A stretch of 64,000 nt of DNA from Meghimatium bilineatum. Its lineage: Eukaryota > Mollusca > Gastropoda > Stylommatophora > Philomycidae. Positions 1,658 through 46,189 of this stretch are shown piece by piece (within the stretch, counting starts at the first letter, position 1; each line of letters opens with the position of its first letter). The stretch is taken from positions 36,929,129 to 36,993,128 of the forward strand of contig CM067315.1 of the NCBI GenBank assembly GCA_034231615.1, given 5' to 3'. The notes under the pieces are model-generated. The model was not told where the DNA came from and did not search any database. It saw nothing but the letters and a program-made list of their open reading frames with translations. Position numbers and translations under genes: made by a program.

Positions 1658-1687
1658 CTGGAACTGCACCAGCCATATTCATTATGC
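1658..1687 (-). CDS. SLC17A9-like: SLC17A9-like exon 11, 30-bp microexon
   Basis: 30 bp: acceptor GTTTTTTCAG, donor CAG/GTAGGT. With the G from exon 10 it reads GIMNMAGAVPG, corresponding to the GVANTAGALAG turn of TM11. Starts and ends in phase 1. No later exon is recognisable between 1 and 1657, which is filled by LINE and mariner relics, so the gene ends outside the window. Confidence 0.82.
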
Positions 1688-4600
1688 CTGAAAAAACAAA
1701 CCGGAACACAAAATAAGACAATAAAATTGAGAAAAAGGTAGCATCAATTTATTGAAGACATTTATTAATAATAAATTATACAAATGGTCCTTCATGTCAA
1801 TTAGGAGGAACACGCTAGCCTAGTTGATAATGAGCTTGCCTGCTATTACCAGGTTACAGCGTGCTAGGTTCGAAACCACGTCCAGTCACAAAAAATGTCA
1901 GACATGAGTTGAGACATATCTAAACATCATCAGCTATACATTGCCATTCAATGGATACCATCACACTGTGGAATCATAGGTATCGAGAAAGCGAATGCTC
2001 TGTCAAAAACAGGAAATGAAATGGAACAACACAGACAACCACTGTCCTACAGAGAAGCAAAACAATAATCCAGAACACATACACAGCAAAGTGGAAGAAA
2101 CAAATGGAAGTGGAAGTCAAACATGATGCACTACATCACCTCCAATGATATGAACATATCAACAGACCACAATATTTTGCCTTAGAGCAGGCCACTGCAG
2201 ACTGTTGGGTTACCTTTACCGATTGAGGATCTTATACACAGATGAATATCCATGTGGACCTAGAACCCAGACTCCTGAACACATACTTCAGGATTGCCCA
2301 ACATACAAAGAGCAGAGACAGACCTGGCCAGTGGATACAGATTTGAGACAAAGGCTATAGGGCAGCCACTCTCACTTGGAGAAGACAGTGGACTTCACCA
2401 TGACGACAGGCCTGACAATATAACATTACCACAGATGCTGAACGCAGAAGACCTTTAGAGCATGCTATGCAAAATAAAAAGAATGGGCCACTCTTCTCAG
2501 TAACATCCAAAGTATCACATTTTATATAATATTTCATACAACCTTTTGAAGGTCATGAGCCTTGAAATTCATGTTCTACATACATAGATTACATCAGCCT
2601 CTTCTTTATACAATCAAGAATGTAATCTGTTTTGTTGAAAAATATTGCTGGTTCATCACAAAATGTGTCCACATTGTTAACGAAACAACCATACATTATT
2701 TAATGAAACAAACTTTCGCTACGATGCATACACCACAGCATCCATTGATCTGCGCACAACACACTGAGACGACCCCTTGGGAGGGGGGCTCTCAATGTGT
2801 TGCATGCAGATTGAATGATCGGAAGCAGACGTTGCAGGTTTTTTTTATCTCCACATTACGGAAGCTGTATAAAATCAAACCTAAAATTAACAGGTTGAAA
2901 TATGTGAACACATCATTCCGCAATGAACCCCTCTGCTCTACAATACCAAATAAAGCACATATTACCAGCTCAGTCACAATACAATACATACCAAAAACTG
3001 CACCAGCATGTTTTGGTGCGATATCTTGAGGGTTAACTAGAATTCCACTATTGTGAAAGCCACAACAGGATACAGCAAGTGCCATACACAGCAAACATGG
3101 TAAATAGTCACTGACATATGAAATTAAAAACAAAAAGAATGCTGTCCCACATAAAGCTATAGTCTGTGGGAGAAACAAACATAAAAACTAATTAATAAAT
3201 GTTCATTTATATAAATGTTTACTTATATAAATGTTTACTTATATAAATGTTCACTTATATAAATGTTTACTTATATAAATGTTCACTTATATAAATGTTC
3301 ACTTATATAAATGTTCACTTATATAAATGTTCACTTATATAAATGTTCACTTATATAAATGTTCACTTATATAAATGTTTACTTATATAAATGTTCACTT
3401 ATATAAATGTTCACTTATATAAATGTTCACTTATATAAATGTTCACTTATATAAATGTTCACTTATTTAAATGTTCACTTATATAAATGTTCACTTATAT
3501 AAATGTTCACTTATATAAATGTTCACTTATATAAATGTTCACTTATATAAATGTCGTATGATTAGTTCAACAGAATCATATTATGGGCAGTCTCCATAGT
3601 CAATGTTAGTTGCAATGGAATTCTAACTTCTGTCTTCGTCATATATCTCTGACAGGTTGCTGGTTGTCAATTTCTTGATGTCATCCCTAACCGAAAATAT
3701 GATTATATAATATGATTATTCATATATAAGATATGAAAGTGTCTTTTTTTGGGGGGCCCAAAATATCTGCTTTGTCTTCTTTTTACAAGTACCAGCATTT
3801 CATAAAATATTTCATTCTTTTTATACAAGACCTGGCTGTCTGTTTCTCTGTTTGTGAAATACATCAAATTCAACATTTCTAAAGACTCCATTATGTCTTT
3901 TAACTGATTGTTTTGATTCTTCCATGTTTTGATACTATTCAGCACAAAACTAAATATACTTTAGTTAGTTAGTCGTTGGATCATCATCACTGCAAACTGG
4001 ACACGTTCATAGTTGCTCCGAACTCTCACTGAGTGTATCCGTCATTACACTTCTGAGGGATCTCCTTAGCAAAGTGGTTACGCTGTTTGCCTTGTGTTCA
4101 AGAGATCAAGTGTTCGAGTCTGACTCGTGTCGTCTTGTGTACAAGGTGGATATTTTCGGAGATCCCTGTGGATTATCACTTGAAACTACGGAATTACATG
4201 ATATGAGTGGTACTCTTGGCAGGCGACGTGCCGCTTCATTGAGAGTGGCAGAGTATATATGGGAAACCGAGTACAATGAAGTCAATCCTCTACATCTTTT
4301 GAACCCTCTTTTGAACTTCTGCTGACAGTACCTATATATACTGATCTTTTTCAGTCATTTTGTCATATTTCACTTTGCTAGATTTCAACACTGAAGGCAT
4401 ACTAGATTTGGACAGCGAGTCCAAGAGAAGATCCTGCTTGTATCAATTCAGCAACCAATTTGTCATACCATGGTGGCGTGCCAAATTTTATAGTGCTCAA
4501 CTTAACTTATTCTATGATGGATTCTGGTTCACATTCTGTGTATCTATTTTTACTTGTCTGTTTTAACATAAACATGTTGTGCCTTGCAGTTAGAGAATGA

Positions 4601-7600
4601 AGAGATATCTTGAATATATTCGCATGTGTGCCTTGTATGCAGTTGTTTACATTAGTAACAAATTTTTGTGATTCATATTTTGCTATGGTGTCATCTGACT
4701 TGTATCCAGTGTATCTAAACATCATTTTGGATATTTCTACTAACCAACTATTAATGAAAAATGTATAACACAGTAATCAATTCAAGGAACAACGTATACA
4801 GTTAACTAACCTCCATTAATTTCCTCACAAAAGTTACTGTATAACCTGAAAATATTTAGAAATCAGATAAAACAATGATACACAGATTAATCCCACTAAA
4901 GGAAATAGTAACAGATTAGTAAACAGATCAAACATGAACACATACTGGAGTAAATAATAAAATAAAACATTGCAAGAGAAATAGCACTTTTTGTTGTCTG
5001 TTTTGTTTTTCTGATGTTTGTTCATTACAGATTTATTACTATATGTAAGTTTGTTGAGATTGTTCCTTTTCACCAATATATGTGCTATTTGTTTTTCTTT
5101 CTTGATAAAGGCCCAGTTATTGTAACATGTTCAAATCATTTATTTATAAATTTTATATTTATTATTATTCGGGTGACATTCTTTCCAGAGTTCAGTCATC
5201 TTTATGGACACTGAACAGCTCACAATTCTAGGTGAATTGACCTGCTGCATCCAAGGGCATGTTTAAACACTTGAAATGCCTATGTCCACCATCGTCTTGG
5301 GCAGTCCTTTACCCTGTTACTAGCAACTGTGCATCCCAATATTAGTCTGTCCATGCTGCTGTCTTTTTATATCAGTGTTTCCAACATGGGGCTCACACCC
5401 CACAGGGGGGCAATATGATTGTTCGGGGGGGGGGGAATTCGAACAAGTTGTAATTAGGCTTCATTACGGAATAATTAAATTTTTTAATATTAAAAAAATA
5501 AGTATATATTACATAGGAGGGCATCCGAATTTTAGAAAGACAGGTGGGGCACGGTACAAAAAAGGTTGGGAGACACTGCTTTATATGGTCAAAAATCCTT
5601 CTTGTTATGTTTTTAAGAGCTAACCATCTTGCACATGTAATGTTCTTAATACTTAATGATTTATTTTAATAAATATTTATAAGGTGGTTTATTTATGGTA
5701 AGACATATCCATACTTATCCTTGTTAATGTCTATTAGTGTTTCTGTGGCCCTTGTCTTTTGTTGGATATTCTGTGCTTTCTTAGTTATTAAATTAGCTAA
5801 TTTAAAGTTGTAAACACAAATCTATCACAATAGAAACCAAAAGACAAATCATACACTCAATCTTCATACCAATATTGTTTTATCAATGTCAGACATGGGC
5901 ACTAATAAAAGAACAAGAGAGAAAGCTTACTATGTGTGGAAATGAGATGTGTAAGAAAAGCAGCAAACAGAACAAGAAGAGATCATGTAAGGAATGAAGA
6001 GATTACACAAAACTGTAGAAACCATACCTGTAGTCCAATATAACAGAGAGTGAAATGATTCTTCCACTTCATGAGAATGAACCCTTATTGGCCAGCGGAA
6101 GTAGCATACATGAAAATGGAAATACCAGGATATAGAGGTAGACTAAGAAGAAGGTGCAATGAAGAAGTTATAAACATTCTGAGTCGTCACAATATTACTG
6201 CATATCAAGCATCCGGCTCTGTGGTGGAGTGGTACAGAGCCATTGTGACGGCCAAAATACCAAGTTCGATCCCCACCACAGTCAACTGTGCATCAAACCG
6301 TTCAGAAAGAAATTGGAAACTACTGAATGTATTTATATTTTGTAGAAAATCACTACAGCCAAAAAATGCTTGTTTGATGGCTATGTCCTGAATAGGATAC
6401 ACTACCAATTTTTACTCTTTATCAAGTGACCAAACGTGCAATAGCCCGAAAACCGATAATCATTTCATAACAAGATAATTTTACTTATAATTATTTATAA
6501 TCTATATAAAAGTAAAGGAATGTCCCATGGCAGCACCTGCCATTGGGGATGAAGATAACTATTCATGTAGCCTATATAATATATAGTTTTTCTATATATG
6601 CTTTATGTACCCACAGGAAAAAAGCTAACTGAAAGTCCAAAGAACAGTGACAAAAAAACAATGAAAGATGAGACTAAATCAACTAGGCTTGTGGACAAAA
6701 TTGCAGAAGATTAGCCAGATTACACCAGAGTCGGTTGTCTGGCAAAAATATTATGCCAGAGTCAGATGTCTGGCAAAAACATGCAGATACTACAGTCAAG
6801 TAGTAAACCACAACACAATGTAGATTTTTGGTTTTTAAAGTCACTTCACATCATTGAAATGTATAGAGTAATCTATGGTGTTATGTCTGTATTTTTCTAT
6901 AACCATTGGCATACATTTGGATAAAATTAATCAGCACCTTACATGCTGCTTTTATTTTTCTACATATTGTCTATTGTCTTTCCCTAGGTGGTTTGTTCAC
7001 CATTCTTGCTGTTAAGCGTATGGGTGATTGGCACTTGAGCTTGTGTTCCACGGCCAGATGTGTGCGTTTATGCGGCCGTGCTATGATTGCGTTTGTTCAG
7101 GATGTCTCTGACATTTTCTATCTATCTTTTCCGTGGTCTTCCTCTGGCTTTGTACTCTGATCACTACATAAACTGGCTGATTCTGAATCATCTGACTAAG
7201 AAGTCAACAGACAAACCAATGAGCTACGAAGGCTGAAATGTATTCTAATGTCTGGACTAAATTCCATGAACTCAAATAAAATTAAGAATAAATGAAGATG
7301 ACAAAGATAACAACAAAATTCAAATCAATATATTTATTTATCAATGTCAAAAAATCAATTACTCAGGAAATTTTTACCAAGTTTCTATAGGTAATTAAAG
7401 TATATGGTTATCTAAGGTTACAGGAAATTATCTGCTTACCCTTGGTAATCATTTTATCTGCAATCCAGCCACCACCAATTGTGCTCGGTATTGTAACAAG
7501 CCATGGTACGACATTAAACACCCATCCCTGTTTATGAAAAAATGTAAGTATAATTGTCCCATGAAACAAAATCCGACAAATATTAATATTTTTCTCAAGA

Positions 7601-10600
7601 AACTATTAAGTACCTTGCATGCTTCAGAACAAATAAGTGGTGAATTTGAAGATGGAAGCCGAAAAAACATGTATGGGCTTCATTATAAGAATACAATTGG
7701 TTCAAATTAATGTTTTTAGTAATATTTAGAAAGTAAGAGAGAAATGACCCAAAACTATTCTCAATTAACCTTTACGACTCTGCGGGCGAGGTCACGCACC
7801 CGTAGGACACGCCCCCTTGTGCCTGCGGGCGAGGTAACTCACCATACGATATCGCCTGATTCCCGAGTACGGAACTTCACGAAGTAATGTACAGATGACG
7901 TATAAAACCTGCCAAACGAAGCTAGGAATACGTCACAGTTTAAAGGTCAAATACCTTTATTCATTACGATTGTAAGAGAGAGAAAGCCGGTTGAATTTGT
8001 CAACGCATTTCTAGAGCGACTTTAGCCATTTTCGGCCGTATTTTACTATCAAATTGAGTACCGCGTGGCATGAGTACGTGATCGTGACTACATGTTCTAA
8101 TTGTTGTTTTTTGTGTTTAATATGTTGTTATTGGATAAGAATGTTTGTGTATTCATTCAAAAACACAAAAATAATATGTATCAGGGGTGCCACATGTGTG
8201 CATGGACAATAATTACGTTGCGTGTCGGCATAGACCTAGTGTTGACCGGACGGACATTATATGCGATTTCTTCACGTTTTATTAGTTTTTTTTGTTCATA
8301 TTATTTTAGTTTGGATATAAAACAATACATATACAATAAGTATAGGTAAATATGAGTATTTTACCAATGTTGCAACACATTGCTCATGTATTAGGGTCGT
8401 CAAGAAGATATATTTGCGATTTTGCAAATGGCGTTTTCCGTTTTCCCCCCGAATTTTCAACTTCACAACTTGCTCACAACTGTCATATCACACATACAAC
8501 AACAACAAAAACACGATTATATTCACTATTCATTCCTTTATTTACATGTGCAAAAATTATTTAAATATCTTCTAAAACAAAAAGTTATTGCGCTTTCAAA
8601 ACACTCACCATCAACAACGAAAATTTTCCAAAAAGAATCCAGGCCCAGGGGAGAAATTTCTCAATTTAATTCAGGGCTCTAAAGGTTAATAAGTCATATT
8701 ACCTTGGCTGTTGGAAAATTTTCATGAAAGTAAGTTGGCATCCATGATAGTAGAATGTAGAATGCATTGTTTTCACAGAAATGACCAATGAGTAATGACC
8801 TGAGGACAAACGGAATATTACATTAGATTAAGTACTTCTAAACAATCATTTTTTTAACTGCAGATTATCCTTCTTAAGATGATCTATGCCTTACTTTGCA
8901 AAAAAGAAGAATGGGCTGATCCGTCTGACCTGAGAAAGAACACTTATATATTCATTCATTCATTTTCCTTTTGCGCTGAAATTAGCGAATAGGGCAGAGG
9001 TCAGATCTCTCCAATTCTGTCTGTTCAAAGCTATTCTGTGCAGTTCTTTAATAGTATGAATATTGGTTGTTTTACTTTCTTTAAGTATTGTTCTTCTGAG
9101 TGTTTCTTTTGGTCTGCCCCTTTTGCATGTAGGTATCCATTCAAGAGATTGGTGGTGTATTTTGTTGATGTCTGCGCGTATGCCATGCCCGATGTAGAAC
9201 CAACGACGTTTTCTGATAACATCTGTGATGAAATTTTGATGTGTCTCTTCTCTGATTTTATCATTCGATTTGAATTCACTCCAATGGGTGTTAGTTATCC
9301 TACGAAGACATTTGTTCTCAAAACTCAGTAATTTCTTTTCACTTACATATGGCTAACTATAAATAACATAGACCAATCAAATGATTGCTTTAATTTTCAA
9401 AACATACCAGCAATGAAATTGAAGCTACCTTGAAAGTTTACACACTCTGTGATCACTGCTTTAAATATTCTTGTGCATACAAGAACATGTGTTCTCTTCA
9501 GAAACGTCTACTAATTATTCTAAAAATGAAATGTTGTTGAGCGATATTCTGGCAACAACATACAGAGATCACAAATCTCAAAAGAATTGAATAGCCCTAC
9601 CTCTACTGTCAACTTACAATAAAGAATTCAGTATGCCTACCTCTACTGTCAACTTACAATAAAGAATTCAGTATGCCTACCTCTGCTGCCAACTTACAGA
9701 ATTCAGAAGGACTACTTCTGCTGTCAACTTACAGAATTCAGTAGGCCTACCTCTGCTGTCAACTTACAATAAAACAGCTAGTCTAGAAGTGACACTGCAT
9801 CGACTTGGACAACAGTCCATTAGAAAACCCACCAGTGTTTTACACAACAATAAAAACATGGGTGGAGTATATCTGGCTTACATGTTATACTATTACTTAG
9901 ATGAGCACAGGACTTGGAAATAATGGAAAACTGTCACATACAATTATGTTTCATGCATCATGAGATTGGAAACAGCAAGATACAGAGAAAGACCAAGAAG
10001 AAGGTGGATTGGAGGAGTTACAAACATTCTGAGACATCACAATATTAATGCACATGAAGTGACCACATGAGCCATGGCCCAAAAACAGATTTTCATTCAA
10101 TCATGCGACTCCTTACAGCACAAGCAGAAAAAAGACAATAGAATATTTTATCTCCAATGTTGCTAAATGTGCACATCACATTCAGTACAAAGTGCAAATC
10201 ACATTCAGTACAAAGTGCACATCACATTCAGTACAAAGTGCACATCACATTCAGTACAAAGTGCACACGAGTACAAAAGTAAAACCATGATACACATTCA
10301 ACACCAGAGTGGTAGACATGCTCAATGGGGGCTAAAGTCAAGACAATCAAGCCAGATAATTGATGCACATGCAGGAGTGTCATACATCCCTAACAATACA
10401 GAGAAGAATTGTTGTATTAGTAGCAATAAGAAAAAACCAGGAAGAAGAAAGATTTTCTCACAGGAAAAAAGGTGAGTATACCCTTAGTTTGCAAAAATAA
10501 AATGTCAATACTATTAGTGGGATTATAAGATATTACATATACATATATATATATGGTAATATAAGAGAAAGTCAAAGGTGAAAGAACACAAACAGAAAAT

Positions 10601-19600: not shown

Positions 19601-22600
19601 TCATTGTGTAACCCCAGAAAAAAGCAGAGAGAACTGATCCCTGAAAAAAATACCAATGAAATAGACACACAATGCATCTAATTAGTTTATGAATGAACAC
19701 TAATATTCATTTTTAAGATGAATGAAAACATTTAGCTGGAATAAAGAGTGAATAATCTTATATTAATTTGCCGCCCGTGTGTTCCCGGGCCCGAATGGGA
19801 GCAAAGAATAGCAACACTGTTTACCTTCCACGCATGTCATAAAAGGCGACTAAGGAGGTTATGGGATGGAGTTGGCTGTCCCATCCCATATAGGGTCAGT
19901 GACCCAAAGCCATGCTGAAGTCGGATGTGTCAGGCCGAAAGGCGCGGATATCACAGCAATGCTGTAAACCATGACACAACGCATTCCTTTCTCTGGACTA
20001 CATCCTGCTAATCTGCAGGAGTTTGAGAATGAACGCAGAAGAAGAAGAAGATATTAATTTGCAATGTTCACTGTGTCAATTTCTGTGAATGTTTACTAGA
20101 AATTTAGAACATCGGCATAAGATTACTTTCCAAATGACAACGGTAACATAATTCATAATTATAACTGATTTATTTATTAATTTATAACCAATCCTAACAC
20201 AACACCCCCCCCCCCCCCCCCGAATCTAATGACGAATGGCAAATTAATATTACATAATTATAGCTAATTTATTTTAATAATTTATAACCAATTCTAACCC
20301 TTACTCCACCTCCCCCCACCCCCCGCATCTAAATGCTAATGCCAAATTAATATTACGTTTCAATGAACACACTTTAATTTTAATTACACATTCTATTAAA
20401 CGTACTCCACGGTAGCTTGCTAAAAGGTTAATCACACTGCAACGGTCAGGTAATACCTTGAAACTAGAGCAAAGGTCACATTGAAGACTTATACAGTAGT
20501 TGCGCCATAATTCTTACAGATGAATTGAACCAGGTCCATTCTAGCAGCACCGAATCACTTCACAACACATGTAAACAGTTTTCTACATGCAACACATGTA
20601 AACAGTTTTCTACATGCAACACATGTAAACAGTTTTCTACATGCAACACATGTAAACAGTTTTCTACATGCAACACATGTAAACAGTTTTCTACATGCAA
20701 CACATGTAAACAGTTTTCTACATGCAACACATGTAAACAGTTTTCTACATGCAACACATGTAAACAGTTTTCTACATGCAACACATGTAAACAGTTTTCT
20801 ACATGCAACACATGTAAACAGTTTTCTACATGCAACACATGTAAACAGTTTTCTACATGCATATAGGCCCATTGTCTATACGCAGGTGAATGATGGTTCA
20901 TAGTATCCACACTTGCCATTAAGCGTAGTGGTGAGAGCTCCAGCTGTCATTCCAAGGCGTGATGTGGCGCTATGGTTACACTAAGTCCATGTTTGTTCAA
21001 AGTTATCTTGATGTTTTCTATCCGATTTCTCAGTCTACCTTTGGCTTTATGTCCAGATATTCTTTTGTTATATTCTCTAATTGGTACTTGGTTTGCATTC
21101 ATTTTTATAAGGTGACTGAACCATTTTATTTGATGTCCACAATGTTCTGTAGAGAGACATAGAATTTAACCTTAAGGATCCTATTCTAATTTAACCTTAA
21201 TTTAATATATTTTAAACCTAATTTAACCTTAAGGATCCTATTCTCTCTGCCACTGTTTTATTAGGTTTCAATATAATCAGTGTTATTGATAAATAAAAGT
21301 TATTGAGATCTGAACATTTTGTGATTTAGTGATTTAAAATTCATAGAAAGATAATTCCATCCAAACGAGAAAAATAATTTCACAGTAAGAGAATTAACCT
21401 TAGATATCATCGCTGATTGGTCACAAATATTTGGAGCAAAGTACTGATTTTGATCAGTACCGAAAATACAGGACACTCCACTCTTTGCTGTTTTTGGAAT
21501 GGTAATAAGGGGTTGGTCTGTTTTGAGAACAATCGATACACTGTCATTTGTTTCATTTTCTGACACTACCTAAATGTTTTGCATTTAAAGCAAGTCTTTG
21601 TCAAATCTTGACTTTGATACCTATAACTATTAGTTTATTAGTTTAGCTTTATATATGCTTTTTGATGCCATTCCTGAGAACATTTTCCTCAGAATAAAAT
21701 ATTTATTAATTAAAATCTCTTAGAAAACAAAACTCAAGAAGAACCTCCTGTGGTCCAGTGTATATTATACCACAGTCCAGCACCTGGCTGCAGCCAGGCA
21801 ATTGAGAAGCACTGGTCTAGAGCAGTGGTTCTCAACATGAGTCATATGGCCCACCTGGGGGGGGCCATGGAGACCTGCAGGGGGGTGGGGGCATGGAAAC
21901 ATTTCGAAATTGGAGGCAGGAAGGTACTTGAATGATAAACAACAAGAATTATAATATTAAAGCTGAAAAAGCTTTGGTGACTTGTAAAGAAGGTCAGTGA
22001 CATTTTAAGGCATGGGGGAGGGGCACAAATGAATATTCGTCCCAGAAGGGAGTCACAGGTCAAAAATGTGAACCACTAGTCCAGAGAATAGAGATGCTTT
22101 ATGTCATTTTTTTTTTGGACAACCTGACACATCTGAACTTCTTTGTATATATGTGGTTATTGATTACTAAAAGCTAAAAGAAAATATGTTACAACAGAAA
22201 TGACTTATCTACATGGAATTCTCAGAATAACAATAAGAGACAGAACAAGAAATGAAAACATCAGAAGATTAACAGATGCAATGCCAATCCCAGATTACAA
22301 AAGAAGACAACAGATTAAGTGGTTTTCACATGTTTCCAGACTACCATCAGACAGTGCGGCTGAAAAAGCATTACTATACAGACACAACAGATATAAAGCC
22401 AGGGGCAGATGATGCAAAAGATGGATTACAGGAACAAAAGAATCAACAAAAACAAACATATATGAAGCACACAAAAAGATAATTTCCAGAGAACTCTTCT
22501 ACTCTTGACACTGCAAAGAATAAAGGGGTATACAGCAGGGGGAAAAGAAAGAAAGATTACTAAAATGATATAGTGCTAGTCTCCCATTCTAGTTAATAAA

Positions 22601-25600
22601 GATACTTAAGATGATGGTTTCTGTAGCTTACTACAATTCTCACAGAACTCTACGTGAACCCTTGACATATGCATGCACTGTTCATTTCAAAGACCCTTAT
22701 TTGTAGTATAAAGGAGTGTAATCCTTCAATAGGTTTTGGTCACTAAGCTAATGCAATATGTGTCCTCTTCAATCACAAACATTATCAATAGTAGCAGTAC
22801 AAAATTACAAGCCTTTGATTAACGCTAATGACAAAATACTGTCCTTACTGATTCGGTCTTGTCCCATCCCATCTCGCTTGCTACAGAGACAATACACAAT
22901 GGCATAATTGTTCTTGCTGAATACAACATGGCTGTACCAACAGTCAGACCTATCACCCATTTTGTTTTTTCACTCCTGGCAGAAACATACAAAATATTCA
23001 GAAAAATATTAAGCACATTTTAAACAATAATAACACTAATAAACAACATAAATGTATATTCAGAAACCTTGAAAAAATATGGAAGTCAAAAATCCTACAT
23101 ACATGAATAATTGGTCTTGTTATGCCAATTATACCGCTTTTATATTATATTATCGTATGCTTAAGCCTTTGGTCTCAATAAAGTTCATCACTATATATAA
23201 ATGTTTTCTGCCTGTTTCCAACCTCCACTACTATTTAGTTCTCATTTCCTATATTTTTTAAATAATTGTTGAACAAAATGTTTTGTGTGCCATGATTTAT
23301 AGTTTTGATGCATTACCTACACAATTCAACCAGACACATTTGACAGCATTTCTCTTATGACTTTGCTCCATAGCAAACTTTGTGGAAACATGGCTACCAG
23401 CATGAAGATGTTGCTATGGAGACAGTTGTGCATCAGTTGCATTTGGATGCGAGAGGTGATGAATACACGTCAACATCCATTAACAGTAGGCAGGACGTCC
23501 ATCCCAGATATTACATGTAGTCTTCCCAGACACATATGACATTATTGCTTCTCTTCTATCACTTCTGCATTCGCCCTCAAACAAACAGCATGATAATCAT
23601 GTGCTTTGAGCCAGAGGACTTGAAGTACATTATGCTGCTAACTTTACAGCAGAGCTTCATTATTTACGCCTGCGGCCCGGCACATCCATTTTCCATATCC
23701 TCTTACTATGACTATCTTTATCTCTTATTCACGTGTTAACCAGTACAAATTGTTCATGCCGAAATTTACTTACCCGGTAACTTTTATATTGTTTAGTTAT
23801 TTCAGTTTCTTTATTAATATTTATACAAAATTATTATTTATTACATATTATATCGAACAATTTGTTCAGCAAAACTATATATATGTTATAAACTATTTCC
23901 TCAAAATACCCATTGGTTATTATTTACAAATCTTTTAAAAAATATATAAAACTTTACTATTATAAAAATATATAGGCTCTGCTTCAAATTTAAATTAACA
24001 AGACTAATAACCTTGTATATAAGACACGTAATGTTATTTTAGACAATTTCACTTTGTTAACTGGGCATTCTCCTGTATAGATTTTCCTATCTGATTATCT
24101 TACTTAACTTCTAAAAGAATTACAGTAAAATATTGATTGTCTGAACTAATTAGAATCAGAATTGGCTCAGTTAATTAGTATCTTTTTATATTAAAGCTAA
24201 AACTAGGCTACAGATTAATGTCAGTAAACACATAAGGTATAAGATAGGTTTAGGCAATGATCTACAGTTTTGACTTTCTAATGACTCCTCATGCCCCTGT
24301 ATCCACAGCGGCCAGATAGCCTGACAATTTGTCACCTGTGGAAAAAAATCATTATCACATTTTGTCTCAGTTTCTTATTTTTTGTCTTCTATCAAATAAT
24401 CCCAGTGGATATCAAATGCAGTCCAGTGAACATTGCACTTTTGTGGCAGACTCCTAGGTGCTAGATGTGTCATCCCATGGATGGGTCAACAAATCTGACA
24501 AGAACGATAGTTGACCCAGGTGTGTGCTGGGAAACTGGCAGGATGTGGTCATCCTGAGATAATAGCCATCCATTACAGACAATGATAGCAACAGTCTCAG
24601 ACTTGTGTTGTTGCATCTCTCTGGTGTGTACAGAGATGACTGAAAAGTTCAATCCTGGCATAGAATCTCCTGCCCCATTGTATGATCAGAATTGGGTGTT
24701 TGTGTGTTTGTTGTTCTGACTTTTCAGGCAGCACGTTTTCTCCACGCCTTTGAGATTTGATGTTTCTCAGCAATGCAAGCACCTTTGCTGGTGTTGCTGT
24801 GTCACATGGGTGAATCTGAGAGTCAGACTCCCCTGGAAGTAGTGTCAATGTTGAAACTGAGAGAGTGCTAGAAGCATCTCTTCTGTTCACCTGCCAGTCA
24901 TTTCCTTTGAGGAGCTTACCATATATCAGCTATTTTGGGATATGTTTGTCAGGGATAGCACAACATGTCCATGTCCAGCGTATCTCAGCTAAGCCTTCTT
25001 CAGCATTGCATGAATTCTTGGTATGTTGAATCTAGTAAAGAACTTCAGTATCAGGTACTTTATATTGCCACTTTATCCTGAGAAGTTTACGGATACAGTA
25101 TGTATGAAAGTGACTTACAGCACTCTGGCAGGTTTGCTGTACACTGTCCAGGTCTCACAAGATATAGGAAAATAATATTTGCTAATTTGTGTCACACCTA
25201 TGAACCTGGCTGATTATTGGTCTTATTATTATTTTTATTAGTAGTATTATTATTATATATCAAGTGACATATTCTTTCCAGAACGTTGTCTTCATCGTGG
25301 ATACTCTGTTCTGGACAAGCAGATCTGCATTGGCCAGAGACGTGCATACATTCTTCAACGACGCTAGTTCATCATCTTCTTGGTCTTCCTCTTCTTCTCT
25401 TACCTGGCACTCTGCCCTCTAGAATCAGCTTTTCGATACCATCATGTCGCTTTAAGTGTCAAAGATACTGTAGCTTCCTTCTTATGATGGTATTTAGAAG
25501 CCACCTTTCATTTAGTTATTATCATTATTATTATTATGTCTATTTTCTATAACGTTTAAGAGGTAATTTAAGAGTTCTTTAAATTATTCTTCCCACCTTT

Positions 25601-28600: not shown

Positions 28601-28815
28601 AATTCATGAGAGAGTTAGTAACTCTGCACGTTCAGAGCTACGGTTTAAGTGATAGAGATTAATAGAACCGCAAACTCAATTAAAACTTCTCTAACATCAG
28701 AATAATATTGTGCTTACTTTGTCCAAAATCTTCCATCAAAATCTACTATGCCTCTGTCCTTTATTGAAATAAGTTTACATTCTTTGAGATAGTCGTCAGC
28801 TGTAGCACTCGCCAT
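1658..28815 (-). CDS. SLC17A9-like: SLC17A9-like vesicular nucleotide transporter, 11 coding exons, 3' end outside window
   Basis: Gene-level entry; exons are listed separately. SLC17A9 (VNUT) proteins are 12-helix major-facilitator carriers that load ATP and other nucleotides into secretory vesicles or lysosome-related organelles, driven by membrane potential. The spliced product reads 404 codons plus one base and follows the family from the N-terminus through the hallmarks FFWGY, LSDRIGGE, LSRVCLGICQG, the GWVFNVVPWL helix and the HNSGILVNPQDIAP helix. Vertebrate members are about 430-440 residues, so only roughly the last 30-45 residues are missing, to the left of base 1. All ten junctions use GT-AG sites and keep phase, and no in-frame stop was seen, so this looks like a functional gene. 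Family identity comes from remembered alignment to SLC17A9; a related SLC17 member (sialin or VGLUT-like) is less likely because of the N-terminal and TM1 match. Transport substrate is inferred. Confidence 0.9.
1805..1898 (+). repeat. tRNA-derived SINE head
   Basis: Contains an A-box-like TAGCCTAGTTGATAATGAGC and a perfect B-box GGTTCGAAACC about 45 bp later, spaced as in a tRNA gene. The same head (GGTTACAGTGTGCCAGGTTC) occurs on the minus strand at 61500-61575. It lacks a full tRNA fold, so it is a SINE rather than a tRNA gene. Confidence 0.6.
1935..2480 (+). pseudogene. I-clade LINE C-terminus: RNase H end plus zinc-knuckle tail
   Basis: Reads IQWIPSHCGIIGIEKANALS (the C-terminal W-x-P-x-H-x-G-x-x-x-N-E-x-A motif of RNase H) and then, after frame changes, RLRAGHCRLLGYLYRLRILY and a C-x(n)-C-x(n)-EHILQDCP block ending in a TGLTI-like terminus. 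This RNase H plus C/H-rich tail layout marks I-clade LINEs. 5'-truncated and broken. Confidence 0.7.
2481..2985. other. unassigned intronic sequence
   Basis: No recognisable coding or repeat signal. The forward open frame crossing 2562-3029 is the antisense shadow of exon 10 plus intron. Confidence 0.5.
2992..3163 (-). CDS. SLC17A9-like: SLC17A9-like exon 10 (TM9-TM10)
   Basis: 172 bp, acceptor TTTCTCCCACAG, donor G/GTATGT. Encodes TIALCGTAFFLFLISYVSDY, then LPCLLCMALAVSCCGFHNSG and ILVNPQDIAPKHAGAVF. The F-x-x-S-G-I-x-V-N-x-Q-D-I-A-P-x-x-A-G motif is diagnostic of SLC17A9/SLC17. A 16-bp minisatellite begins about 30 bases upstream of the acceptor. Confidence 0.96.
3193..3553. repeat. 16-bp minisatellite, about 22 copies
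   Basis: Unit TTCACTTATATAAATG with C/T variation at one site (TTTACTT versus TTCACTT). Very homogeneous, with only a few substitutions (for example ATTTAA at about 3467). It starts about 30 bases from the exon 10 acceptor on the minus strand, so it occupies the branch-point side of that intron. Confidence 0.95.
3554..4050. other. unassigned intronic sequence
   Basis: AT-rich intron 9 sequence with no clear open frame or repeat family. Confidence 0.45.
4055..4135 (+). repeat. tRNA-derived SINE head
   Basis: A-box-like TTAGCAAAGTGGTTACGC and B-box-like GTGTTCGAGTC spaced about 35 bp apart, as in tRNA genes. Surrounding sequence gives no tRNA acceptor stem. Sits in the intron between exons 9 and 10. 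Family membership beyond the promoter boxes is not established. Confidence 0.5.
4136..4800. other. unassigned intronic sequence
   Basis: Intronic DNA between a SINE head and microexon 9. Several short open frames, none resembling a known protein. Confidence 0.4.
4811..4845 (-). CDS. SLC17A9-like: SLC17A9-like exon 9, 35-bp microexon
   Basis: Only 35 bp: acceptor ATATTTTCAG, donor GAG/GTTAGT. With the G carried from exon 8 it reads GYTVTFVRKLME, matching the GYRAITVRKLMQ stretch of SLC17A9 (loop before TM9). Starts in phase 1 and ends in phase 0, as exon 10 requires. Confidence 0.88.
5165..5335 (-). pseudogene. LINE family H 3' tail
   Basis: Minus strand reads LPKTMVDIGISSV, then TCPWMQQVNSPRIVSC and ELWKECHP. 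The terminal W-K/E-x-x-x-H-P/L and D-x-x-x-S/I-D arrangement recurs at 13490-13640 and 25262-25505, all minus strand, defining a shared 5'-truncated LINE family. Confidence 0.55.
5373..5578. mobile_element. hAT-like MITE
   Basis: About 206 bp with imperfect terminal inverted repeats: left CAGTGTTTCCAACATGGGG, right (reverse complement) CAGTGTCTCCCAACCTTTTT, typical of non-autonomous hAT elements. Flanked by an imperfect 8-bp duplication (TTTTATAT / CTTTATAT). Interior holds G and C tracts and no coding capacity. Confidence 0.75.
5845..6205 (+). pseudogene. LINE family B C-terminal region
   Basis: Fragments read CQTWALIKEQ..LTMCGNEM, HENEPLLA-like sequence, and GRLRRRCNEEVINILSRHNI. The same set (CYKCQTWILTKEQEIKLTMC, then GKPRRRWIEGVTNIL) occurs on the minus strand at 15770-16445, and the tail alone at 9955-10085. 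Multiple frameshifts. Confidence 0.65.
6208..6290 (+). repeat. tRNA-derived SINE head following LINE tail
   Basis: GGCTCTGTGGTGGAGTGGTA carries an A-box-like TGGTGGAGTGG and AGTTCGATCCC is a near-perfect B-box 36 bp downstream; the ends (TGTGGTGG / CCACCACAG) can pair like an acceptor stem. It begins right where the LINE B tail ends. A degenerate tRNA pseudogene is the alternative. Confidence 0.55.
6291..7000. other. unassigned intronic sequence
   Basis: No supported gene. A short direct duplication around ATTACACCAGAGTCGG / TTATGCCAGAGTCAG with GTCTGGCAAAAA lies at about 6718-6782. Confidence 0.4.
7005..7150 (-). pseudogene. possible LINE family D tail
   Basis: Resembles the minus-strand D tails at 20915-21165 and 54412-54690 (TTAAGCG..., GTTTGTTCA...GATGT, TTTTCTATC). 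Short and diverged; a weak call. Confidence 0.3.
7440..7527 (-). CDS. SLC17A9-like: SLC17A9-like exon 8 (TM8)
   Basis: 88 bp, acceptor CATAAACAG, donor G/GTAAGC. Encodes GWVFNVVPWLVTIPSTIGGG then WIADKMITK. Matches the GWIFNVVPWLVAIP helix and following gate loop (G-x-x-x-D) of SLC17A9. Starts in phase 0 and ends in phase 1. Confidence 0.95.
7765..8689. mobile_element. piggyBac-like MITE, subfamily 1, TTAA-flanked
   Basis: 925 bp bounded by TTAA on both sides. Left terminus TTAACCTTTACGACTCTG; right terminus read inward TTAACCTTTAGAGCCCTG. TTAA duplication with C-start inverted repeats is the piggyBac insertion hallmark. The right 200 bp is homologous to the MITEs at 16835 and 26924 (shared TTTATTTACATGTGCAAA-like and CAAAACACTCACCATCAACA-like blocks). 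No transposase coding. GC-rich left end. Lies wholly in intron 7 of the SLC17A9-like gene. Confidence 0.78.
8703..8799 (-). CDS. SLC17A9-like: SLC17A9-like exon 7 (TM7)
   Basis: 97 bp, acceptor TTGTCCTCAG, donor AAG/GTAATA. Encodes SLLIGHFCENNAFYILLSWM then PTYFHENFPTAK. The F-Y-I-L-L-S-W-M-P-T-Y-F motif is the TM7 hallmark of SLC17 carriers. Ends in phase 0. A piggyBac-like MITE ends 14 bases downstream of this exon. Confidence 0.95.
8955..9340 (-). pseudogene. LINE family F C-terminal region
   Basis: Minus strand reads NKCLRRITNTHWSEFKSNDK, IREETHQNFITDVIRKRRWF, YIGHGIRADINKIHHQSLEW, IPTCKRGRPKETLRRTILKE, then LNRQNWRDLTSALFANFSAK. This is the region after the reverse transcriptase in RTE/CR1-type LINEs, with a single short frame break near 9280. 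A second tail copy is at 61590-61735. Confidence 0.8.
9585..9775. repeat. 40-bp tandem repeat, about 5 copies
   Basis: Unit begins GCCTACCTCTACTGTCAACT and continues TACAATAAAGAATTCAGTAT; later copies lose AATAAA or carry CTGCTGCC variants. Confidence 0.85.
9955..10085 (+). pseudogene. LINE family B 3' tail
   Basis: Reads RYRERPRRRWIGGVTNILRH then HNINAHE; same tail as the family B copies at 6150 and 16020. Short, 5'-truncated. Confidence 0.6.
10170..10268. repeat. 23-bp tandem repeat, about 4 copies
   Basis: Unit TGCACATCACATTCAGTACAAAG, four copies with one A/C variant. Confidence 0.9.
10620..10915 (-). pseudogene. Penelope-like element: GIY-YIG endonuclease fragment
   Basis: Minus strand reads DFRYLRQSDPCVHLYSMKYQ, TVADHFNGHRGAYDIQVAAI and KSCFSDVPTYHALENHIYFN, LARLSPFG. 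The HFNG-x-x-G...DIQV-x-A-I-x-SCFSD block matches the better preserved copy at 26205-26600. It represents the C-terminal half of the GIY-YIG domain of Penelope-like retroelements; the catalytic start is missing. Confidence 0.7.
10916..11335 (-). pseudogene. LINE reverse transcriptase fragment
   Basis: Minus strand reads VKGDDETSDWFQGLKGVWQR then YSDFRYYLFNIYAGNIMR, a decayed G-V-R-Q-G-x-x-x-S-P-x-L-F-N-I-Y RT block, followed by NMKKIKIMTTQSKTKSNFIV and DNQELEDVIN, the post-YADD N-x-K-K-T-K segment. Confidence 0.65.
11340..11545 (-). pseudogene. I-clade LINE zinc-knuckle C-terminus fragment
   Basis: Minus strand reads QQLPICRHFSHPNETVEHFF then IDCPYFSTEMKNFTDTL: the C-x(n)-ETVEHFL-x-DCP motif typical of LINE ORF2 C-termini. 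Confidence 0.6.
11649..11820 (-). CDS. SLC17A9-like: SLC17A9-like exon 6 (TM6 and central cytosolic loop)
   Basis: 172 bp. Acceptor TTCAATATAG is purine-interrupted and weak; donor G/GTAATG is acceptable. Encodes MCGVFWMLTMRYMLIAKGRD, a variable loop, then TVPWVTLFMKPAFW. The P-W-x-x-L-F-x-K-P-A-x-W block is a strong match to the start of TM7 in SLC17A9. Starts in phase 1 and ends in phase 2 (TG/G). Confidence 0.9.
11932..12195. repeat. foldback element of two head-to-head tRNA-like SINE units
   Basis: The left edge AAAATCATGCAGCAAACAGG and the right edge CCATTTGCTGCATGATTTT are inverted copies. Each arm (about 90 bp) contains, outward, a Y-shaped tRNA promoter pair: GGTGTGGTCAAAGACGG and AGTTCAAATCCC in the right arm, matched in the left arm on the minus strand by GTCGACTCAAGTGGTGAGGC and GGTTCAAATCC. 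Spacer about 70 bp. In the intron between exons 5 and 6. Confidence 0.7.
12196..12300. repeat. dispersed repeat K fragment
   Basis: Sequence around TCTCACTATACAATCATATC, GTGACCACTAGTGGTTGCCA and ATTCCATATGCTGGCAG is repeated with about 15 percent divergence at 13798-13895. Adjoins the foldback element. Family unknown. Confidence 0.6.
12310..12445. mobile_element. pogo/Tigger-like MITE, partial
   Basis: Reverse complement of the right end, TACAGTGAAATCTCATTATA then ATAACTTGGCCTAGTCTGGA, matches the left end of the element at 31197. Shares GTATGTAATAACAGAAATTT with it. Inverted-repeat ends of this type (CAGTnrAAYCYCnTTATAAC) are seen in pogo/Tigger MITEs. Confidence 0.6.
12886..12959 (-). CDS. 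SLC17A9-like: SLC17A9-like exon 5 (TM5)
   Basis: 74 bp, acceptor TTTCTTTCAG, donor G/GTATGT. Encodes TLFTGCIGSLLMDHYSWCVP then FYII. Corresponds to TM5 and the next turn of SLC17A9 (TLLTGAVGSLLL in vertebrates). Begins in phase 2 and ends in phase 1. Confidence 0.93.
13137..13290. mobile_element. half copy of palindromic MITE
   Basis: Matches the right half of the palindrome at 14308-14614: GTTAGGATAGTTGTGTTTTA, AAATGACGAACATGAAATTT and the terminal GTGGCATCTACTTGTACTGT. Left half absent. Confidence 0.65.
13329..13438 (-). other. 36-codon open segment of unknown origin
   Basis: Minus strand after TTTCTTTCAG reads AVDGWLVPDPAVHGLMPEPF then DPMQEIKSMFADGFYSL and a stop. Composition looks protein-like, but the frame does not fit the phase-2 end of SLC17A9-like exon 4, so it cannot be a cassette or alternative last exon of that gene in this frame. 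Could be a TE relic or a chance frame. Confidence 0.25.
13490..13640 (-). pseudogene. LINE family H 3' tail
   Basis: Minus strand resembles copies at 5165 and 25262: DITEHLNIALTAAGQFL then EHL..RMFPEKNMSPE. Decayed. Confidence 0.45.
13798..13995 (-). repeat. dispersed repeat K
   Basis: Minus-strand CCCCATTGAGACCAGCTTCT and CAGAGGCTGGAAACTAAGA recur on the plus strand at 46213-46280 (CCCCATCGAGGCCAACTCCT; CAGAGGCTGGAAACTAAGA). The other half matches 12196-12300. Probably the 5' end of a LINE or another dispersed element; not identified. Confidence 0.55.
14055..14154 (-). CDS. SLC17A9-like: SLC17A9-like exon 4 (TM4-TM5 loop)
   Basis: 100 bp, acceptor GTTCTTTCAG, donor GTGAGT. Encodes G-FHYPGMTSIISRKVLEHQRS then FTYSIVSSGSYV. 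The pattern Y-P-x-x-T-S-x-x-S-x-K-V-x-E-x-x-R-x-F-x-Y is the SLC17 cytosolic segment between TM4 and TM5. Starts in phase 1 and ends in phase 2, fitting exons 3 and 5. No single frame is open beyond the exon, so a scan for long open frames misses it. Confidence 0.92.
14308..14614. mobile_element. palindromic MITE with duplicated terminal repeat
   Basis: Left arm CAGTACAAGTAGACGCCATG ... TCATGTTCATCATTTAAT is inverted in the right arm ATTAAATGATGAACATGA ... GTCTACTTGAACTGTACC, around a core of GGGTTAGTTATGTAAAACAC and ATCCTAACTCTAACCC. The last 46 bp (GAGATGTGGATTCAACTATG onward) is tandemly duplicated. Superfamily not certain. Confidence 0.7.
14930..15310 (-). pseudogene. I-clade LINE zinc-knuckle C-terminus
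   Basis: Minus strand reads AIIFRL-TSHNKRRSHMFQK, MKIDKTDLCNCGLSSENAEH, ILHAC and FWPTETAQLPYLRGSIDDLK, RITQFIETIGAI. C-N-C-x(7)-AEHILHAC is the conserved C/H motif, and the D-L-x-x-x-x-x-F-I terminus matches those at 2360-2480 and 46430-46499. Confidence 0.75.
15311..15740. other. unassigned, possibly more of the I-clade LINE
   Basis: Minus strand has a short PTHRGDGSTKYLCQ-like stretch but no secure domain. Confidence 0.3.
15770..16445 (-). pseudogene. LINE family B C-terminal region with GATA-type tail
   Basis: Minus strand reads IFIPTLCYKCQTWILTKEQE, IKLTMCEIRCLRKATNRTRR, DHVRNEYRSRWNN, then RLKWFSHLMRMNPYWPVARA and GKPRRRWIEGVTNIL. A stretch at 15900-16010 matches the family C tail instead, suggesting recombination or nested insertion. 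The 3' end is followed by (GATA)n-like sequence at 15738-15765. Confidence 0.7.
16655..16785 (+). pseudogene. LINE family A 3' tail
   Basis: Plus-strand CAGTCTAGCAGAGTGCACCA, then GGAGATACGTTGCAGCCAAC and CGGAGACGGCACTTGATGAT with (GAT)n, identical in layout to the tails at 36295 and 40860 (minus). Encodes the C-terminal SLAECTTKTRDRRCWRYVAA, then GDGT. 130 bp, 5'-truncated, adjacent to the MITE at 16835. Confidence 0.75.
16835..17731. mobile_element. piggyBac-like MITE, subfamily 2, copy 1
   Basis: 897 bp flanked by TTAA. Left end TTAACCTTTAGCAAGCCAG; right end inward TTAACCTTCACCAAGCCTAT. Inverted relative to the copy at 26924-27815. Interior holds GTAAGT-type donor-like sites and, near the right end, a CpG-rich GCCGCCATTTTG block. 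The 78-codon frame starting MASYRCADVVRLIALK is interrupted in the other copy, so it is not a conserved gene. Confidence 0.85.
17810..18235 (+). pseudogene. LINE family A C-terminal region
   Basis: Broken frames read VFEMWKYRTIGRTPWKEKK-like, KIKQMKYFGHIRRHDTLLK, LLVGKVEGSRARGRQRYKWV and SLAECTTKERDKGC. Same family as the longer copy at 40857-41790. Confidence 0.75.
18675..18970. repeat. 41-bp tandem repeat, about 7 copies
   Basis: Unit AATTTAGGTGTTTTGACAGG followed by AAAATGTCCTCAAAACTGTAT; outer copies are truncated or diverged (first has an A-run, last lacks part). Confidence 0.9.
18985..19275 (-). pseudogene. LINE endonuclease domain fragment
   Basis: Minus strand reads PFILGDLNARVGTDNCSWPA, NLGHHGTGNINENGQRLLEF, CNSNHLCVTKIIFATEPIHK, ISWSHPKSGHWHQLDLIL. 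This is the G-D-x-N-A-R-V-G and S-W-x-H-P-x-S-x-x-x-x-Q-L-D-x-I-L core of the APE-type endonuclease of LINEs; one stop near the N-terminal side. The rest of the LINE is not adjacent. Confidence 0.85.
19305..19421. repeat. tandem duplication of exon 3 donor-proximal intron
   Basis: AAGAACAATAGTAATACCTA, GGAATGTTATAACAAACTTC and ACTAT occur twice (about 19315-19362 and 19375-19419). The copy touching exon 3 supplies the splice donor; the distal copy continues into GACCTTG, a partial echo of the exon edge (ACCTTGG). A 16-bp GATAAGAACAATAGTA is repeated a third time. Confidence 0.85.
19421..19640 (-). CDS. SLC17A9-like: SLC17A9-like exon 3 (TM2-TM4)
   Basis: 220 bp, the longest exon. Acceptor TTTTTTTCAG, donor G/GTATAG. 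Encodes GSVLSAFFWGYTMTQFLGGY followed by LSDRIGGEVVLP: the MFS loop 2-3 signature (G-x-L-x-D-R-x-G-G) that gates the carrier, then TM3 and TM4 ending LSRVCLGICQG, which carries the conserved TM4 arginine of SLC17 proteins. Ends in phase 1. A duplication of the donor-proximal intron sequence lies just downstream. Confidence 0.96.
19790..20053 (+). repeat. dispersed GAA-tailed repeat (SINE-like), full-looking copy
   Basis: About 260 bp: begins near GGGAGCAAAGAATAGCAACA, contains GGCGACTAAGGAGGTTATGG and TGCTGAAGTCGGATGTGTCA, ends GCAGGAGTTTGAGAATGAAC then GCAGAAGAAGAAGAAG. Related copies: 38715-39058 (plus), 40030-40280 (minus), 35300-35800 (minus, interrupted). No RNA polymerase III box is clear, so it may be a LINE-derived short element. 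Confidence 0.75.
20115..20335. repeat. two-copy tandem repeat with poly-C tracts
   Basis: About 125-bp unit (AATTATAACTGATTTATTTA, TTTATAACCAATCCTAACAC, C-run, CAAATTAATATTAC) present twice. The C-runs are up to 18 bases long. Confidence 0.75.
20385..20480. repeat. dispersed repeat shared with 28270-28350
   Basis: GTCAGGTAATACCTTGAAAC and TAGAGCAAAGGTCACA match GTCAGGTAACACCTCGACAC and TAGAGCAAAGGTCACA at about 28304. Family not identified. Confidence 0.6.
20564..20860. repeat. 27-bp minisatellite, 11 copies
   Basis: Unit AACACATGTAAACAGTTTTC then TACATGC, virtually perfect in 11 copies (297 bp). Because 27 is a multiple of three, several frames are open on both strands; the forward frame repeats NTCKQFSTC and the reverse frames repeat nine-residue units. 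No start context, domain or exon structure supports a protein. Confidence 0.95.
20915..21165 (-). pseudogene. LINE family D 3' region
   Basis: Minus strand carries fragments such as NGSVTL, KRMQTKYQLENIAKEYLDIK and the tail AATGACAGCTGGAGCTCTCA / CCACTACGCTTAATGGCAAG, matching ends at 29880, 43950 (plus) and 54412 (minus). Confidence 0.6.
21163..21243. repeat. short direct repeat pair
   Basis: AATTTAACCTTAAGGATCCT then ATTCT occurs at 21163 and 21219, separated by further TTTAACC/TTTAAACC echoes. Confidence 0.7.
21823..22078. mobile_element. hAT-like MITE with 8-bp duplication
   Basis: Left end CAGTGGTTCTCAACATGAG; right end inward TAGTGGTTCACATTTTTGAC. Flanks GTCTAGAG (21815-21822) and GTCCAGAG (22079-22086) form a 7/8 target-site duplication, as expected for hAT. 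Lies in intron 2. Confidence 0.8.
22195..22560 (+). pseudogene. LINE family C 3' region
   Basis: Plus strand reads LGITIRDRTRNENIRRLTDA-like, MPIPDYKRRQQIKWFSHVSR, LPSDSAAEKALLYRHNRYKA and, after a frameshift, RWITGTKESTKTNIYEAHKK. Parallel copy at 30035-30405. Confidence 0.75.
22849..22975 (-). CDS. SLC17A9-like: SLC17A9-like exon 2 (TM1)
   Basis: 127 bp, acceptor TTCTGCCAG and donor GTAAGG. Encodes SEKTKWVIGLTVGTAMLYSA, then RTIMPLCIVSVASEMGWDKT and ES: the first transmembrane helix and the following luminal segment of SLC17 carriers. The 3' junction is phase 0 and joins to exon 3 as KTES-GSVLSAFFWGY, matching the family exactly in spacing. Confidence 0.92.
23017..24430. other. unassigned AT-rich intronic sequence
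   Basis: Intron 1 sequence with no recognisable repeat or coding segment; several short chance frames in AT-rich DNA. Confidence 0.5.
24440..25200 (-). pseudogene. LINE family E C-terminal region with C2H2-like end
   Basis: Minus strand reads ETWTVY-like, RFNIPRIHAMLKKA, LRYAGHGHVV and, further 3', VNRRDASSTLSVSTLTLLPG, then GRRFYARIELFSHLCTHQRD. The final C/G-R-x-F-x-A-R-I-x-L-x-S-H-x-x-x-H is the single zinc-finger terminus of this LINE type. Frame broken repeatedly. Confidence 0.7.
25262..25505 (-). pseudogene. LINE family H 3' region
   Basis: Minus strand reads LQYL-HLKRHDGIEKLILEG, RVPGKRRRGRPRR, then SVVEECMHVSGQCRSACPEQ, SIHDEDNVLERICHLI. The G-R-x-x-G-x-R-x-R-G-R-P-R block is the typical LINE region downstream of RT. 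Confidence 0.65.
25720..26225 (+). pseudogene. LINE family E C-terminal region
   Basis: Plus strand reads AVVLPVLLYASETWTVY, MRTLNHFHTTCLRKVINI and near the end DTWEELAQNIATWRSMVKHI. Corresponds to the region at 63100-63580. It runs directly into the Penelope-like sequence that follows. Confidence 0.7.
26205..26923 (+). mobile_element. Penelope-like element 3' part with GIY-YIG endonuclease
   Basis: Reads VTFPKATFTIEKSFTCVSRN, VIYAIICKRCAMTNIGETGR, RLTDRFCEHLYSIKNHLGLP, VHFNGTGHR, then after a stop at 26515 LELENRYIYQYGTLKPDGIN. The V-I-Y-x-I-x-C-x-x-C...Y/N-I-G-E-T-G-R-R-L-x-D-R-F-x-E-H-L block is the GIY-YIG nuclease of Penelope-like retroelements; here the YIG tyrosine is Asn. The downstream TTGATAAAGGCCTTTTGGTC then GAAACGTCGA is the usual 3' region of such elements. 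RT is missing; 5'-truncated. Confidence 0.85.
26924..27815. mobile_element. piggyBac-like MITE, subfamily 2, copy 2 (inverted)
   Basis: 892 bp flanked by TTAA; reverse complement of the copy at 16835-17731 over its whole length. Right end inward reads TTAACCTTTAGCAAGTCAG and GAAACGTCTCCCTGCCACCG, as in copy 1. The 280 bp next to the left end is more diverged (GGCGCTAGACGCC in place of the GCGCGCC block). No transposase. Confidence 0.88.
27816..28700. other. unassigned sequence with one shared repeat
   Basis: Contains the repeat shared with 20385-20480 near 28270-28350 and a GC-rich stretch GCTACACACGGAGCGAGGTG. Otherwise no feature recognised before exon 1. Confidence 0.4.
28718..28815 (-). 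CDS. SLC17A9-like: SLC17A9-like exon 1 (start codon)
   Basis: Begins MASATADDYLKECKLISIKD and ends FDGRFWT plus two bases (AA) before the donor GTAAGC. Exon 2 starts with G, completing AAG, so the junction reads RFWTKSEKTKW, which lines up with the cytosolic N-terminus before TM1 in SLC17A9. The start context is ACCAAAATGG, a good Kozak site. This is a soluble N-terminal tail of about 32 residues with no signal peptide. The exon is separated from exon 2 by a 5.7-kb intron holding LINE, Penelope and MITE copies. Identification rests on phase, splice consensus and N-terminal alignment. Confidence 0.82.
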
Positions 28816-33468: not shown

Positions 33469-33604
33469 AAGGAATTACAAAAATGGACGAATGCCTATTT
33501 CAAATTATTTTATAGGTAAATCCCCTCCCTCAATGAAAACTTATCTACGGCCTTGATGGTTTATTTGGACGTGTGCTGATATGATTATTCGTTATAAACT
33601 ATAC

Positions 33605-41790: not shown

Positions 41791-42030
41791 GTTACCTCTA
41801 ATATTTTATGGTAGTGTGTCCTGATATAACCTAATTGGACTTTGTCCGCTGGTTGAAAGGGGCACGCCTCTCCAAAAGAGAGGCAAACTCATTAACTACC
41901 GGATGAGATCCCCATGTTCTATCAATTTAAATAAAAATCATAGGTTACTGTTTCACGGGCTTAATTTCATCACATTACATATGTCCATTAGTGTTACTTT
42001 CATATTCTATACTGTAAACGCCACAAATAT
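41791..42030. other. unassigned sequence
   Basis: Contains the inverted pair GCCTCTCCAAAAGAGAGGC. No known family. Confidence 0.4.
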
Positions 42031-45990: not shown

Positions 45991-46189
45991 AAATATATAC
46001 ATATACATATATATATATATACATACAGTGGGGTTTTTTTTTCTAGGAAAAAGGTTGGTATACGGAGTTTACAGAAGTGTATAGTCATGCCTTACATGTT
46101 ACTTCACTTACACACAAATATGCCTATGAGACAACCTTACATGTTACTTCAGTTACACAACTGAATGGAACCTGTGCTTTTATTTGAAA

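What the first reader, a model, noticed from the sequence alone, without database searches (positions are those of the whole stretch)
1658..28815. Complete hand-built model of an SLC17A9-like gene, 11 exons, all phases consistent
Only fragments are visible as open frames, but splice and phase reading connects 11 exons into 404 codons matching SLC17A9 from the N-terminus to TM11. Exons 1, 4, 6, 7, 8, 9 and 11 have no usable long open frame, so simple frame scans miss them. The model shows this TE-choked locus carries a live transporter gene.
Basis: partly seen in the sequence, partly recalled or inferred. Interest (0 to 1): 0.7.

Follow-up and report, generated by a model that had tools for sequence, protein, structure and literature searches.

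The report
An ordinary intact SLC17A9 transporter gene
The window holds all but the last exon of a normal, unbroken gene for a transporter of the SLC17A9 type, which in other animals loads ATP into secretory vesicles; its introns are long and rich in repeats, but the gene itself is ordinary.

Summary
The hand-built model holds. Recalled human SLC17A9 scores 934; 20 shuffled queries reach at most 281. Sialin letters from the PDB return exons 3-12 with the same internal boundaries. The missing last exon lies just left of the window (L009:9443-9582, minus) and completes a 450-residue protein. The product is 42.5% identical to SLC17A9, 28-30% to VGLUT2 and sialin, and joins SLC17A9 in a five-sequence tree (100% of 200 bootstraps). 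Exon 1 is least certain: the aligner prefers another place, no homology supports it, but of 329 candidates it alone meets thresholds that I set after seeing it. Corrections: exons 6 and 8 do lie in open frames of 90 and 64 codons; three intronic frames scanned for transposon domains had no match. Expression, copy number and substrate were not tested; the genome search did not complete. Verdict: real, ordinary, a new member of a known family.

The parts
28718..28815 (-). exon 1 (98 bases), ATG at 28815; 5' untranslated sequence upstream not delimited
Evidence: No homology support, and the aligner chose another place.
22849..22975 (-). exon 2 (127 bases)
   Evidence: Spliced alignment with recalled SLC17A9
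19421..19640 (-). exon 3 (220 bases)
   Evidence: Spliced alignment with SLC17A9 and with sialin at the two lower intron costs; at the highest cost the sialin alignment starts at 19661
14055..14154 (-). exon 4 (100 bases)
   Evidence: Spliced alignment with SLC17A9 and with sialin
12886..12959 (-). exon 5 (74 bases)
   Evidence: Spliced alignment with SLC17A9, sialin and VGLUT2
11649..11820 (-). exon 6 (172 bases)
   Evidence: Spliced alignment with SLC17A9, sialin and VGLUT2
8703..8799 (-). exon 7 (97 bases)
   Evidence: Spliced alignment with SLC17A9, sialin and VGLUT2
7440..7527 (-). exon 8 (88 bases)
   Evidence: Spliced alignment with SLC17A9 and sialin; with VGLUT2 the donor shifts to 7422
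4811..4845 (-). exon 9 (35 bases)
   Evidence: Spliced alignment with SLC17A9 and sialin; with VGLUT2 the acceptor shifts to 4836
2992..3163 (-). exon 10 (172 bases)
   Evidence: Spliced alignment with SLC17A9, sialin and VGLUT2
1658..1687 (-). exon 11 (30 bases); the last exon, 12 (140 bases with stop), lies outside the window at L009:9443-9582 minus
   Evidence: Spliced alignment with SLC17A9 and sialin; exon 12:

Best explanation
This is an unbroken animal gene of the SLC17A9 (vesicular nucleotide transporter, VNUT) clade of the SLC17 transporter family: 12 coding exons over 29.4 kb on the minus strand, 450 codons, separated by ordinary repeat-rich introns. Shown: the exons, the reading frame and the closeness to SLC17A9. 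Likely but not shown: exon 1. Inferred from the family: the protein is a 12-helix membrane carrier of secretory vesicles or lysosomes that uses the membrane potential made by the V-ATPase to load ATP and other nucleotides, for release by exocytosis.
For: Spliced alignment with two queries from separate sources gives the same exons; shuffled queries score far lower; 12 exons and 450 codons with no stop and no forced tiny intron, the shortest of the 11 introns being 1,065 bases; no base of the 12 exons has a second copy in the surrounding 104 kb, while 29% of the gene span does; MFS_1 is the one Pfam hit on the exon 2-3 fragment; the best PDB matches are sialin and VGLUT2, E 1.7e-43 and 1.3e-36; identity and tree place it with SLC17A9; the arginine that is R119 in the recalled human sequence and R184 in VGLUT2 is kept as R141, R184 being named a luminal chloride site in a passage of PMC12240346. 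A passage of PMC13368725 says that VNUT carries MgATP into vesicles with the potential made by the V-ATPase.
Against: No transcript; the search of the genome for other copies did not complete (13 tries); exon 1 has no homology support and the aligner preferred another place; the human SLC17A9 query is from recall; the aligner allows only GT-AG introns, allows no frameshift and fines stops, so it leans towards an intact model; the tree has five sequences, none from a named invertebrate, so the neighbouring Slc17a10 clade of nematodes (PMC2824716) could not be tested. A simple hydropathy scan gave 14 overlapping segments and did not resolve 12 helices.
Confidence: 0.93

Rival explanations
1. A recently silenced or duplicated SLC17A9 copy (pseudogene) that has not yet gathered a disabling change.
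For: The locus is rich in repeats; expression untested; the copy-number search did not complete.
Against: 450 codons without a stop and one exon for each homologous block; of the residues compared, the TM4 arginine and many SLC17A9-type residues are kept; PMC2824716 (Mining section) reports one SLC17A9 in each animal species studied except the three teleosts.
Confidence: 0.05
2. A member of a neighbouring SLC17 clade (Slc17a10 or an invertebrate-only group) with a different substrate.
For: Slc17a10 is reported as the clade nearest to SLC17A9 (PMC2824716) and was not in the tree.
Against: 42.5% identity to human SLC17A9 over 421 positions; 33 columns where it shares the SLC17A9 residue against a residue common to sialin and VGLUT2, 18 the other way round, among the 33 Q148 where both others have glutamate.
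Confidence: 0.06
3. A chance chain of open fragments, or transposon-derived coding sequence.
For: Reverse-transcriptase and transposase fragments lie elsewhere in the window, at 40.9-54.1 kb.
Against: 934 against at most 281 for 20 shuffled queries; no exon base repeated within 104 kb; recovered by a second query.
Confidence: 0.005

Closest known systems
SLC17A9 / VNUT (vesicular nucleotide transporter)
   Same: 42.5% identity, 179 of 421 aligned positions (human sequence from recall); shared SLC17A9-type residues; tree
   Different: N-terminus about 19 residues longer than the recalled human protein in the alignment, resting on exon 1
Sialin (SLC17A5), PDB 8dwi
   Same: Same family, 29.7% identity, E 1.7e-43
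   Different: TM4 has glutamate where this protein and SLC17A9 have glutamine
VGLUT2/VGLUT3 (SLC17A6/A8), PDB 8sbe, 9wix
   Same: Same family, 28.2% identity to VGLUT2, shared TM4 arginine
   Different: E191 of VGLUT2 is glutamine here

Membership tests
SLC17 (major facilitator superfamily) | Full-length sequence similarity to SLC17 proteins | tested here: met
   PDB sialin and VGLUT2 matched over residues 67-447 and 62-448 of 450; Pfam MFS_1 at 53.8 bits against a cut-off of 33.4 on an exon 2-3 fragment, but 16.3 bits, below it, on an exon 10 fragment
SLC17A9 / VNUT | Closer to SLC17A9 than to other SLC17 members | tested here: met
   Identity 42.5% against 29.7% and 28.2%; five-sequence tree, 100% of 200 bootstraps. 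Small sampling, human reference from recall
SLC17A9 / VNUT | Separate from the nematode Slc17a10 clade | not tested
   No such sequence on hand
SLC17A9 / VNUT | TM4 arginine (R119 in human) kept | tested here: met
   R141; it is also kept in sialin and VGLUT2, so it does not single out SLC17A9. Its role in VNUT is recalled; the matching R184 of VGLUT2 is in a passage of PMC12240346
SLC17A9 / VNUT | ATP transport driven by membrane potential | not testable with these tools
   Needs expression and proteoliposome uptake
SLC17A9 / VNUT | Usually one gene per genome | not tested
   The genome search for copies did not complete in 13 tries
functional protein-coding gene | Start, stop, consistent phases, no disruption | tested here: met
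   the start rests on exon 1, which is likely rather than shown
functional protein-coding gene | Transcribed | not testable with these tools
   No RNA data

The most novel reading that the evidence does not exclude
A lineage-specific SLC17A9-like carrier with a changed N-terminus and perhaps a shifted substrate range, kept intact in a repeat-swollen locus.
Probability: 0.06. Interest if true: 0.3.

Novelty: new member of a known kind. Interest (0 to 1): 0.12.

Why it matters
Scientifically the gene is ordinary.

Tried and rejected
Exon 1 at 25435-25404 (the aligner's choice with SLC17A9): rejected, since the frame has a stop a few codons upstream and no ATG after it (by eye), and the stretch resembles the C-terminal part of a retroelement frame at 40870-41805 (by eye, not scanned). 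With sialin the aligner added a 12-base leader at 25415-25404 at the two lower intron costs, taken as spurious. A VGLUT2 query at the lowest intron cost gave a ragged model with many tiny exons; at the higher costs it gave the gene with shifted boundaries in exons 8 and 9. The 16 NCBIfam matches were all far below their cut-offs. Rfam: no match in the window at the gathering threshold. The first 10,000 of 19,471 bases of contig C32 were read as a possible mitochondrial genome, to name the animal; no tRNA was found and no mitochondrial gene was recognised by eye. Papers for R119 of VNUT: the searches (15 of 882 and 8 of 215 papers listed) showed no occurrence of Arg119 or R119A in the listed papers; passages asked for in PMC13368725, PMC12718155 and PMC6533569 gave only a title in a reference list. 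A search for SLC17A9 with mollusc and horseshoe-crab terms listed 10 of 4,508 papers, none with SLC17A9. No structure was predicted: the spliced protein is not a direct translation of window DNA, which the tool asks for.

Full report
Its size and this gene suggest an animal (inference); the species was not identified.

Observation. I wrote a spliced protein-to-DNA aligner (GT-AG introns only, all three phases, BLOSUM62, stops fined, no frameshifts, simple splice-site weights from recall) and ran it on the minus strand of window 1-34000 plus 40 kb fetched to the left. With human SLC17A9 (typed from recall) it returned 12 exons, score 934, 184 identities in 414 aligned residues. Exons 2-11 fall at 22975-22849, 19640-19421, 14154-14055, 12959-12886, 11820-11649, 8799-8703, 7527-7440, 4845-4811, 3163-2992 and 1687-1658. 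The same boundaries return at two higher intron costs (on window 1-30000 plus 2 kb). Controls: 20 shuffled queries reached at most 281, the opposite strand 272, and 30 kb of other window DNA 176 and 146 on its two strands; at the two higher intron costs the real scores are 879 and 813 against at most 136 and 80 in 15 shuffles each.

Second query. Sialin letters from PDB 8dwi (printed, so not recalled) return exons 3-12 with identical internal boundaries at the two lower intron costs, preceded by a spurious 12-base leader at 25415-25404; at the highest cost the leader goes and the start of exon 3 moves to 19661. VGLUT2 letters return exons 3-12 at the two higher costs with two boundaries shifted (exon 8 donor 7422, exon 9 acceptor 4836), a part of exon 2 at the middle cost and an exon 3 start of 19661 at the highest; at the lowest cost the model is ragged.

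The missing end. The last exon lies at coordinates -418 to -557, counting the base next to the window as 0 (L009:9443-9582 minus, C18:36928571-36928710). It completes a 450-residue protein ended by TGA. The whole gene spans 29,373 bases; the 11 introns run from 1,065 to 5,742 bases. Donors rank between the 86th and 99.8th percentile of 4,345 GT sites and acceptors between the 96th and 99.9th of 4,706 AG sites on that strand; this uses the same weights as the aligner and is not independent.

Exon 1. The aligner prefers 25435-25404, but that frame has a stop and no start codon just upstream (by eye), and the stretch resembles a retroelement frame elsewhere in the window by eye. Among 329 phase-2 first-exon candidates between 22976 and 45000 on the minus strand its donor ranks third; 6 candidates have a donor score of at least 2 and 10 or more codons, and of these it alone has both start-context features. 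The thresholds were set after seeing the exon, following a filter that had been too strict. I take it as likely, not shown.

Open frames. Their stop-to-stop frames are 38, 47, 90, 42, 64, 17 and 43 codons, so the statement fails for exons 6 and 8, which are also in the list.

Identity. Pairwise identity is 179 of 421 to recalled human SLC17A9, 109 of 367 to sialin, 106 of 376 to VGLUT2. A maximum-likelihood tree of five sequences (LG+G4, 200 bootstraps) separates this protein and SLC17A9 from sialin, VGLUT2 and VGLUT3 with 100% support. At 33 columns it shares the SLC17A9 residue against one common to sialin and VGLUT2; at 18 it shares theirs against SLC17A9. One of the 33 is Q148, where VGLUT2 has E191 (number). 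The TM4 arginine is kept (R141), as it is in sialin and VGLUT2. PMC2824716 (abstract, Mining and Discussion sections seen) reports four SLC17 clades, SLC17A9 with one member in most species, and a nearest clade found only in C. elegans, which I could not test.

Intactness and repeats. 29% of the gene span has a second copy of at least 60 bases within the 104 kb held, but no base of any of the 12 exons does. The window holds many minisatellites. Of seven open frames scanned against Pfam, three had a match (two RVT_1, one DDE_Tnp_1_7), all at 40.9-54.1 kb, outside the gene; the three frames from within the gene's introns and one at 59.6 kb had none. So the repeat load of the introns is shown, their transposon content is not. 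Repeats in introns are usual in large genomes (general knowledge).

Mechanism. From the family, the protein is expected to load nucleotides into vesicles with the membrane potential of the V-ATPase; [quoted passage not shown] None of this was tested for this protein. Expression, copy number in the genome, and whether the animal has P2X receptors stay open; the genome searches for the last two did not complete.

Verdict. The finding is correct and careful; the gene is an ordinary new member of a known family.

Noticed in passing
window 46542-51788: Minisatellite of 21 bases, about 253 copies over 5.2 kb; it makes a spurious 1595-codon open frame on the plus strand.
   Followed up: no
window 3195-3554: 16-base minisatellite, 22.5 copies at 97% match, ends 31 bases before exon 10, so next to the branch-point region.
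   Followed up: no
window 19316-19424: Tandem duplication of about 55 bases (2 copies, 98% match) that takes in the last few bases of exon 3 and its donor and sets a second AAG|GT, weaker by eye, about 55 bases into the intron.
   Followed up: partly
L009, just after the stop at 9443 (minus strand): A run of about five copies of a roughly 44-base repeat starts some 65-70 bases after the stop codon, in the presumed 3' untranslated region (by eye).
   Followed up: no
window 32201-33469 and 54947-55431: Further minisatellites: 24-base unit, 53.6 copies at 79% match; 32-base unit, 15 copies at 98%.
   Followed up: no
window 40870-41805, 45205-46068, 53478-54068: Two reverse-transcriptase fragments (RVT_1) and one DDE_Tnp_1_7 transposase fragment, all minus strand.
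   Followed up: partly
window 10523-10903 (minus) and 26094-26516 (plus): Two frames share a stretch that recalls the GIY-YIG end of Penelope-like elements (recalled, by eye); Pfam gave no match for the one scanned (26094-26516).
   Followed up: partly
L001-L008 (contigs C7, C23, C24): The genome holds MFS transporters in single open frames of 452-830 codons: of the 8 loci given, 5 on C23, 2 on C24, 1 on C7; only 8 of 289 candidates were scored.
   Followed up: no
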